Source of the DNA: Spinactinospora alkalitolerans
Lineage (GTDB): Bacteria > Actinomycetota > Actinomycetes > Streptosporangiales > Streptosporangiaceae
Assembly (NCBI RefSeq): GCF_013408795.1
Contig: NZ_JACCCC010000001.1
Coordinates: 2,790,001-2,854,000, forward strand
Direction of reading: 5' to 3'
DNA: 64,000 nucleotides
The position numbers were made by a program, and so were the translations under genes. The number at the start of each line of letters is the position of its first letter. Positions within the stretch are counted from its first letter, which is position 1. The notes under the pieces are model-generated. The model had not been told where the DNA came from and did no database searches. It saw only the letters and a list, made by a program, of their open reading frames with translations. Below are positions 61,575 to 64,000 of the stretch, piece by piece.

Positions 61575-62816
61575 GTGCCCATTGCCCTGCTCGCCCTGGC
61601 CATCGGTGGATTCGGCATCGGGACGACCGAATTCATGGCGATGGGGATCCTGCCCGACGTCTCCGAGGCGTTCGGCATCTCGATCCCCACAACGGGCTAC
61701 ATGATCTCCGGATACGCGCTCGGCGTGGTCATCGGCGCCCCGATCCTGGTCTCCCTCGGCGCGCGCGTGGACCGCAAGCACCTGCTCATCGGGCTGATGG
61801 CGATGTTCACCCTGGGCAACCTCGCTTCAGCGCTCGCGCCGAACTTCGGCTTCCTGCTGGTCTCCCGCTTCCTGACGGCGCTGCCGCACGGCACATTCTT
61901 CGGCGTCGGCTCGGTCGTGGCTGCGTCGCTGGTTCCGGTGACCAAGCGGGCGCAGGCGGTCTCGATGATGATCGCCGGCCTGACCGTCGCCAACGTCGTC
62001 GGGGTGCCGCTGTCGACGCTGGCCTCCCAGCAGCTCGGCTGGCGCAGCACGTTCTGGATCGTCACGGCGGTCGGCGTGCTGACGCTGATCGCGCTCGCCC
62101 TGTGGGTGCCGCGGCAGAAGCCGCGGGCGGGGACCTCGGTCCGCTCCGAACTGGGGGCGCTGACCCGCGTCCAGGTGTGGCTGGCGCTGCTGGTGGGCGC
62201 GGTCGGCTTCGGCGGGATGTTCGCCTCCTACAGTTACATCTCACCGATGATGACCGACATCGCCGGGTTCACCCCCACCGCGGTGACGCTGGTGCTCGCG
62301 GTCTACGGCATCGGCATGACCGTGGGCAACCTCGTGGGTGGGCGCGCCGCCGACCGCGCGCTGATGCCCACGATGTACGCGGGCATGGCCGGTATCGCGG
62401 TGGTCCTGGTGCTGCTGCACTTCCTGGCCCCGTTCAAGGTCGCGGCCGTGGCGATGGTCTTCCTGCTCGGGTTCGTCGGCAGCGCGCTGATTCCGTCGCT
62501 GCAGATGCGGCTCATGGACGCGGCCAGGGACGCGCCGTCCCTGGCGGCGGCGCTGAACCACTCGGCGCTCAACATCGCCAACGCAGCGGGCGCCTGGTTG
62601 GGCGGTCTGGTGATCGCCGCTGGCTACGGGTACACGGCGCCGAACCTGCTGGGCGCGGGCCTGGCCGTCATCGGACTCGGGCTCGCGCTCGCCTCGGGCC
62701 TGCTGGAGCGCAGGGGCGCCTCCGGGCCCGCCGCCGCGTCCGCGGGTGCGGAGGCGAGGGTCGGCGACGCCCCGGACTCCCGCGTCCGGGCCGACTCGGG
62801 ATCCGCCGCCGAGTAG
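61575..62816 (+). CDS. MFS transporter (AraJ/drug-exporter type)
   Basis: A 413-residue, twelve-helix major facilitator. GFGIGTTEFMAMGILPDVSE and LGARVDRKHLLIGLMAMFTL are typical of the AraJ/CmlA-like arabinose and drug efflux group. GTG 61575 starts MPIALLALAIGG. The C-terminal 35 residues are hydrophilic. Substrate unknown. Confidence 0.88.
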   Translation: MPIALLALAIGGFGIGTTEFMAMGILPDVSEAFGISIPTTGYMISGYALGVVIGAPILVSLGARVDRKHLLIGLMAMFTLGNLASALAPNFGFLLVSRFLTALPHGTFFGVGSVVAASLVPVTKRAQAVSMMIAGLTVANVVGVPLSTLASQQLGWRSTFWIVTAVGVLTLIALALWVPRQKPRAGTSVRSELGALTRVQVWLALLVGAVGFGGMFASYSYISPMMTDIAGFTPTAVTLVLAVYGIGMTVGNLVGGRAADRALMPTMYAGMAGIAVVLVLLHFLAPFKVAAVAMVFLLGFVGSALIPSLQMRLMDAARDAPSLAAALNHSALNIANAAGAWLGGLVIAAGYGYTAPNLLGAGLAVIGLGLALASGLLERRGASGPAAASAGAEARVGDAPDSRVRADSGSAAE

Positions 62817-62890
62817 CGCGGCGCCTGGCCCGCGGGGGCCGGGGCGGACGTGTCGCCCCGGCCCCCCGCGCGTCCTTGCGCGGGTCGGGC

Positions 62891-63141
62891 TCACTCCGCG
62901 GGGGCGAAGACCCGCAGCGCCGCCTCGACCAGGCTGTCGGCGTAGTCGGGGGTGAGGGGCCCGAGCGCAGCAGCCAGCGCCGGTAGAGGGGGGCGTAGAG
63001 CAGGTCGAGGAGGAGGTCGAGGTCGGCGTCGGCGGCGATCTGCCCGGCGCGCTGGGCGCTGCGCAGCCGCTCCTTCTTGGCCTCCTCCACCGGGCCGGCC
63101 ACCTTCTCCAGGTAGGCGGTCGCCAGCGCGGGGTCGTTAAC
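62891..63141 (-). pseudogene. TetR-family regulator, C-terminal fragment with frameshift
   Basis: The minus strand encodes a TetR C-terminal domain from the point NDPALATAYLEKVAGPVEEA through RLRSAQRAGQIAADADLDLL and LYAPLYRRWLLRSG. Beyond a C-run (plus strand GGGG 62956-62959) one extra base is needed to read LTPDYADSLVEAALRVFAP, ending at the stop 62891. The DNA-binding N-terminus is missing: homology starts abruptly at about 63138, exactly where an SDR fragment begins on the other strand. Confidence 0.78.
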
Positions 63142-63639
63142 CTCCTCGGTGCGCTGTGGGGGGTCCAGGCCGTCGTCCCGCACCTGCGCGAGCAGGGCTC
63201 GGGACACATCCTGCAGGTGACGTCGATGGCCACGGGCTCGAGCGGGGGCGTCGCCTCCGTGGGCCTCTACGGCGCGGGCAAGGCCGCGCTCGACGCGATG
63301 AGCGAGTCCCTGGCCATGGAGGTCGACCCCTTCGGTATCGCGGTCACGGTCGTCCAGCCCGGCGGCTACGAGACCGGCCTGTTCACACAGGGCACCACCG
63401 TCACCGACGAGAACGCGGCCTACGCCCCGCTGCGCGCCCGGCTGGCCGAGATGTGGAGCGCCTCCTACGACGCCGACCCGCACAGGGCCGCCCCGGTGGT
63501 GATGGAGGTGGTCGACATGGCCGGGCCGCCCCGGCGGGTGATCCTCGGCGGCGTCGCCTACGACCAGGTGCGCGAGCTGGACCGGGCGCGCGCCGAGGAG
63601 CAGGCGAAGTGGGAGCACCTGAGCCGCGCCGCCGACTGA
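63133..63639 (+). pseudogene. Short-chain dehydrogenase/reductase, C-terminal fragment
   Basis: From about 63133 the plus strand reads VVNLLGALWGVQAVVPHLRE and QGSGHILQVTSMATGSSGG, then the catalytic YGAGKAALDAMSESLAM (Tyr-x3-Lys) and FGIAVTVVQPGGYETG, ending at 63639. This is a typical SDR from mid-domain on. The N-terminal NAD-binding TGxxxGxG part is missing. Its first codons touch the truncated TetR gene at GTTAAC (63136-63141). Confidence 0.8.
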
Positions 63640-63662
63640 ACCCGCCCCGCCGCCCCGGACCC

Positions 63663-63755
63663 CGCGTTTTCGCGCTGCACCTCACCGTCGAGGACGGGCT
63701 CATCATCCGGCACCACGTCTACGAGGACGGCCTCGCGGTCGTCCGGGCGTGCGCC
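63663..63755 (+). pseudogene. SnoaL/NTF2-like tail fragment
   Basis: A short frame reads RVFALHLTVEDGLIIRHHVY followed by EDGLAVVRAC, matching the last strand and helix of SnoaL-like (NTF2-fold) proteins. Nothing before it in 63640-63662 belongs to such a domain. Downstream to 64000 I see only GC-rich DNA without a recognisable gene. Confidence 0.5.
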
Positions 63756-64000
63756 CTTGGTGTGCCGGGTCGTCGGTTCGATGCGTGTTCCGCGGAGGTG
63801 GGGCGCTCATCGGGCTCTGACCGCCGCATTCGCGGGGCGGGGCGGGGTGGGACTTTCAAGGCTCGGATCCGCTGTGCCGCCGGCGGCTTGCGCGCACCGC
63901 GACAGCCGACCCCCTGTACGGACCCGGTCGCCGGACACCGGCCATGCCGCCAGGACCACAGCGGCGAATCCCCGGCCCGCCCGCCACCGCCCCGCCGAAC

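What the first reader, a model, noticed from the sequence alone, without database searches (positions are those of the whole stretch)
63120..63155. Two 5'-truncated genes joined head to head at one point (TetR and SDR)
On the minus strand a TetR C-terminal domain begins abruptly at about 63138; on the plus strand an SDR begins abruptly at 63133. Both lack their N-termini and meet at GTTAAC (63136-63141). TetR and SDR genes are often divergently transcribed from a shared promoter; one deletion spanning that promoter and both N-termini explains the picture. What replaced them, if anything, is unknown.
Basis: partly seen in the sequence, partly recalled or inferred. Interest (0 to 1): 0.6.

Follow-up and report, generated by a model that had tools for sequence, protein, structure and literature searches.

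The report
Deletion-broken TetR and SDR gene pair
A deletion of about 0.8 kb removed the shared promoter and the front halves of a regulator gene and an enzyme gene that sit back to back in related bacteria, leaving two dead gene stumps joined head to head; this is ordinary gene decay.

Summary
A TetR C-terminal part (minus strand, 62891-63138) and an SDR C-terminal part (plus strand, 63139-63639) meet inside GTTAAC. In 24 relatives aligned base by base the same two points lie 778-862 bp apart; in a wider sample 43 of 45 pairs have 770-879 bp. Against the closest relative over both parts (G057, 84% DNA identity) the missing piece is 123 codons of tetR, a 121-bp intergenic region and 119 codons of the SDR gene. 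The relatives' intergenic regions carry palindromes that look like TetR operators (at least one in 24 of 24); none lies near the junction in the window. The missing halves were not found elsewhere in the genome, so a deletion fits and an inversion does not. The tetR stump also has a frameshift. A fragment of an NTF2-like gene and a high-copy repeat follow, so the segment is decayed. A Streptomyces tendae plasmid has a separate head-to-head deletion of the same pair; two other genomes seem to have lost one partner only.

The parts
62891..63138 (-). tetR stump: C-terminal part (from about residue 124 of 205 in the G057 relative) with a 1-base frameshift near 62956; no helix-turn-helix
63136..63141 (.). 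GTTAAC, the deletion junction; best estimate of the join is between 63138 and 63139
63139..63639 (+). SDR stump: C-terminal part (from about residue 120 of 284); keeps the TSM...YGAGK region but lacks the TGASRGLG and NNAG stretches seen in relatives
63663..63752 (+). C-terminal fragment of a nuclear transport factor 2 (NTF2)-like gene; a third broken gene, probably a separate event
63757..63985 (+). copy of a dispersed, high-copy repeat that abuts the NTF2-like fragment (ends approximate)

Best explanation
The ancestor had a divergently transcribed pair: a TetR-type repressor gene (minus) and an SDR gene (plus), separated by about 120 bp holding both promoters and operator-like palindromes. 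One deletion of about 0.8 kb (853 bp against G057, 778-862 bp against 24 relatives) joined the middle of tetR to the middle of the SDR gene, with no inserted bases and at most short microhomology. It removed the repressor's DNA-binding domain, the SDR's cofactor-binding half, both starts and the operators, so both genes are dead. Shown: truncation, intact relatives, spacing, no close copy of the missing piece in the held genome, secondary frameshift. Inferred: that it was one event, that it arose by end joining or slippage, that the palindromes are operators, and that the stumps have no function.
For: Spacing: 38 of 40 pairs in the family sample and 5 of 5 pairs added from the class sample lie 770-879 bp apart; 24 of 24 aligned relatives 778-862 bp. 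Complete divergent frames in 6 of 6 loci translated; an annotated TetR/AcrR plus SDR pair in Streptomyces sp. NBC_01166. Base-level join. No close match to the missing segment. Operator-like palindromes in 24 of 24 intergenic regions; in the own genome the operator pattern has 0 exact and 9 one-mismatch matches against 6 for the reversed control. Frameshift in the tetR stump. PMC3511530 (passages seen): in three Streptomyces genomes 67% of TetR-family genes are divergent to a neighbour, and those under 200 bp away are likely to repress it.
Against: The intact parent itself was not seen: the closest relative over both parts is 84% identical (the tetR part alone reaches 88% in G126), so two successive deletions cannot be excluded. 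At 63145 and 63150, inside the SDR part, the window base matches the tetR column better (23 against 1, 22 against 3 of 24), though G057's SDR gene has the window's base at 63145. pN/pS of the SDR stump against relatives (0.51-0.89) is not distinguishable from that between relatives (0.41-0.90), so it gives no sign of relaxed selection. The 1-base frameshift could be a sequencing error. Three flanking proteins had no match in 25 relatives' loci of 8-13 kb, so flanking synteny does not help.
Confidence: 0.93

Rival explanations
1. Inversion or translocation: breakpoints within tetR and the SDR gene joined the two 3' halves here and the two 5' halves elsewhere.
For: An inversion between two same-strand genes would give this head-to-head shape (reasoning only).
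Against: The relatives already have the two halves head to head about 0.8 kb apart, so no inversion is needed. In the own genome the missing DNA gives 13 short matches, the best-scoring 72% over 126 bp in the SDR part (40 of 733 candidates scored), and the other SDR and TetR matches are at most 37% and 44% identical against 69% and 62% for the stumps.
Confidence: 0.02
2. Assembly artefact: the intact pair is in the strain and the assembler dropped about 0.8 kb.
For: No reads can be examined; the 1-base frameshift in tetR might be a sequencing error.
Against: One contig of 6.68 Mb, 99% complete; the two break sites share no repeat, only CGT in most relatives; the nearby NTF2-like fragment also points to real decay.
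Confidence: 0.04
3. The SDR remnant is still expressed as a short protein of about 140 residues (GTG at 63217) with a new role.
For: The SDR frame is open over 168 codons with no stop or frameshift, and the Ser...YxxxK region is kept.
Against: The region upstream of the intact gene is gone and so is the first half of the domain; the first ATG, GTG or TTG in frame lies 78 bases past the join; an open frame is expected in a recently broken gene of high G+C.
Confidence: 0.03

Closest known systems
Divergent TetR-family regulator and target-enzyme pairs of actinomycetes (PMC3511530, passages seen)
   Same: Relatives have tetR and the SDR gene back to back with 121 bp (G057) or 111 bp (NBC_01166) between them and palindromes in that region.
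   Different: Here the shared control region and both 5' halves are deleted.
Head-to-head remnant of the same pair on Streptomyces tendae strain 139 plasmid NZ_CP043960.1
   Same: tetR and SDR 3' parts joined head to head, about 700 bp missing against NBC_01166.
   Different: Other breakpoints (tetR kept from about residue 67, SDR from about 142 in G057 numbering), so an independent event.
Deletion pseudogenes of bacteria in general (recalled)
   Same: Truncation by a short deletion without a long repeat, with a further frameshift.
   Different: One deletion breaks two genes because they share a promoter region.

Membership tests
TetR family regulator | N-terminal TetR_N helix-turn-helix domain | tested here: not met
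   only TetR_C_11, from position 40 of 113; the G057 homologue has TetR_N and the whole of TetR_C_11
Classical SDR | TGxxxGxG cofactor-binding motif and NNAG (recalled as the family's motifs) | tested here: not met
   the match starts at profile position 107 of 195; both motifs are in the relatives' proteins
Classical SDR | Ser and YxxxK active-site residues (recalled as the family's motif) | tested here: met
   TSM and YGAGK present, with a 2-residue insertion between them found in 0 of 24 relatives
Pseudogene pair made by deletion | Intact orthologous pair in relatives, with a missing piece of near-constant size | tested here: met
Pseudogene pair made by deletion | Missing piece absent from the genome | tested here: met
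   within the held assembly and the scored candidates
Pseudogene pair made by deletion | No functional product of the remnants | not testable with these tools
   needs transcript or protein data

The most novel reading that the evidence does not exclude
Head-to-head loss of this pair recurs (here and in S. tendae) because losing the repressor alone would release the SDR gene, so deletions that take out the shared promoter and both genes at once are favoured over single losses.
Probability: 0.06. Interest if true: 0.4.

Novelty: new member of a known kind. Interest (0 to 1): 0.13.

Why it matters
It settles the finding: ordinary gene decay by a deletion across a divergent promoter. By-products of some use are a predicted operator (GAGACG-N2/3-CGTCT, two copies in 22 of 24 intergenic regions, 52-59 bp apart in 20 of those 22) for a TetR-SDR pair present in Streptomyces, Nonomuraea, Nocardia, Saccharothrix and Saccharopolyspora, and a warning that gene callers may name a false gene here: a 316-codon minus-strand ORF (62668-63618) runs antisense to the SDR stump into the tetR stump.

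Tried and rejected
Inversion (own-genome searches for the lost halves): nothing close. Microhomology as a mechanism: CGT is common to both sides in most relatives, but the next base differs, and a random join in the G057 locus shares 3 or more bases in 8.1% of draws and 4 or more in 3.1%, so it proves nothing. pN/pS on the SDR stump: no difference from the relatives. Flanking synteny: none of three flanking proteins matched 25 relatives' loci. Rfam on 62800-64000: one weak Guanidine-II match, 17.6 bits against a cut-off of 32, taken as chance. Adaptive joint loss: G085 keeps a full-length tetR with only an SDR tail, and G058 keeps a full-length SDR with only a tetR tail clearly matched, so single losses seem to occur too. 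Literature: one search for TetR genome context (listing with abstract starts; passages of PMC3511530 seen) and one for divergent promoters and pseudogenes (listing with abstract starts; none looked relevant).

Rows dropped and limits: the script used 138 non-self rows, and 21 rows, all from genomes not; the other rows of such genomes were looked over by eye and hold no tetR-plus-SDR pair on one contig. One search scored at most 3 candidates per genome and at most 2, so pair counts are lower bounds. L062 (Sphingomonas, 29% identity) was dropped; L063, L053 and L083 were treated apart from the 24 aligned relatives. Of 9 loci, 8 were used; two of them are strains of one Nocardia species.

Full report
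What is there. The minus-strand TetR-like sequence runs from 63138 down to a stop at 62891-62893, and the plus-strand SDR sequence from 63139 to a stop at 63637-63639. Pfam finds TetR_C_11 from profile position 40 and adh_short from position 107, with no TetR_N. The G057 homologues match TetR_N plus the whole of TetR_C_11, and adh_short positions 2-189.

The intact state. DNA searches of 41 genomes, 150 family genomes and 394 class genomes, each count including the own genome and partly overlapping, and a protein search of genome contigs (9 loci, 8 used) found the two parts separated by a near-constant distance. Of 40 co-linear pairs in the family sample, 38 have 770-862 bp between the two points that touch in the window; the exceptions are 102 bp (G085) and 491 bp (G058). 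Five pairs added from the class sample have 783-879 bp (G138 contributes two pairs). Many genomes had only one of the two parts or none: 73 of 150 and 64 of 394 had any match at the E-values used. In 24 relatives aligned base by base (14 unnamed family genomes, 8 Nocardia, Saccharothrix and Saccharopolyspora loci, Nonomuraea gerenzanensis, Streptomyces sp. NBC_01166) the distance is 778-862 bp. Six of six loci translated have full-length divergent frames, and NBC_01166 is annotated as TetR/AcrR (600 bp) and SDR (816 bp) with 111 bp between them.

What is missing. Against G057: 123 codons of tetR, 121 bp between the genes and 119 codons of SDR; 853 bp between equivalent points (starts chosen by eye). 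The 24 intergenic regions, about 3.5 kb in all, contain palindromes of the form GAGACG-N2/3-CGTCT with up to one mismatch: at least one in 24 of 24, two in 22 of 24, spaced 52-59 bp in 20 of those 22 (the others 30 and 64), the first usually beside or overlapping a -35-like box. The same loose pattern has four matches in the 64-kb window, none near the junction. That these are the repressor's operators is inferred. The own genome has no exact copy of GAGACGNNCCGTCTYG and 9 matches with one mismatch, against 6 for the control.

The join. Column counts put it after 63138 (0.857): 63130-63138 are best explained by the tetR side and bases from 63139 by the SDR side, with two exceptions in the SDR part, 63145 and 63150, where the window base is commoner on the tetR side (23 against 1 and 22 against 3 of 24). 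CGT (63135-63137) is common to both sides in most relatives. Shared runs of that length are not rare by chance (8.1% for 3 or more).

Deletion, not rearrangement. Searches of the own genome with the missing DNA and with both complete G057 proteins gave the stumps and distant paralogues only (the DNA search scored 40 of 733 candidates).

Further decay. The tetR stump carries a 1-base frameshift relative to 12 of 12 relatives aligned. The SDR stump has a 2-residue insertion seen in 0 of 24 relatives. After the SDR stop comes a fragment of an NTF2-like gene: 27 residues are 85% identical to three Streptomyces plasmids and 81.5% to the NBC_01351 protein annotated as nuclear transport factor 2 family, where they are residues 115-141 of 151; 5 of 40 other genomes have a match. 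Pfam did not recognise the 41-residue piece. A dispersed repeat begins at its end.

Recurrence. On the S. tendae strain 139 plasmid, tetR (from about residue 67) and SDR (from about residue 142) are joined head to head with about 700 bp missing relative to NBC_01166. G085 keeps a full-length tetR with only the last 45 residues or so of the SDR. G058 keeps a full-length SDR (57% identical) with a clear match only to tetR residues 150-203 (41%) and a weak 28% match to residues 54-158; it is a more distant pair, so this case is less certain. Single and double losses both seem to occur, so no special mechanism is needed.

Limits. The intact parent within the genus was not seen, reads were not available, and expression was not tested. 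pN/pS gave no signal either way.

Noticed in passing
No Rfam match above cut-off in 62800-64000. Its nature is not known.
   Followed up: partly
window 63663-63752: C-terminal fragment of an NTF2-like gene between the SDR stop and the repeat, a third broken gene in under 1 kb.
   Followed up: partly
L045:5893-6015 and the equivalent regions of 23 other relatives: Operator-like palindromes (GAGACG-N2/3-CGTCT), two in 22 of 24, in the tetR-SDR intergenic region of several actinomycete genera.
   Followed up: partly
L063 4390-4410 (NZ_CP043960.1): Independent head-to-head deletion of the same pair on a S. tendae plasmid; the SDR remnant is annotated as a hypothetical protein.
   Followed up: yes
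window 62668-63618, minus strand: A mechanical 316-codon ORF with a GTG start runs antisense to the SDR stump through the join into the tetR stump; probably not a gene, but a likely false call.
   Followed up: no
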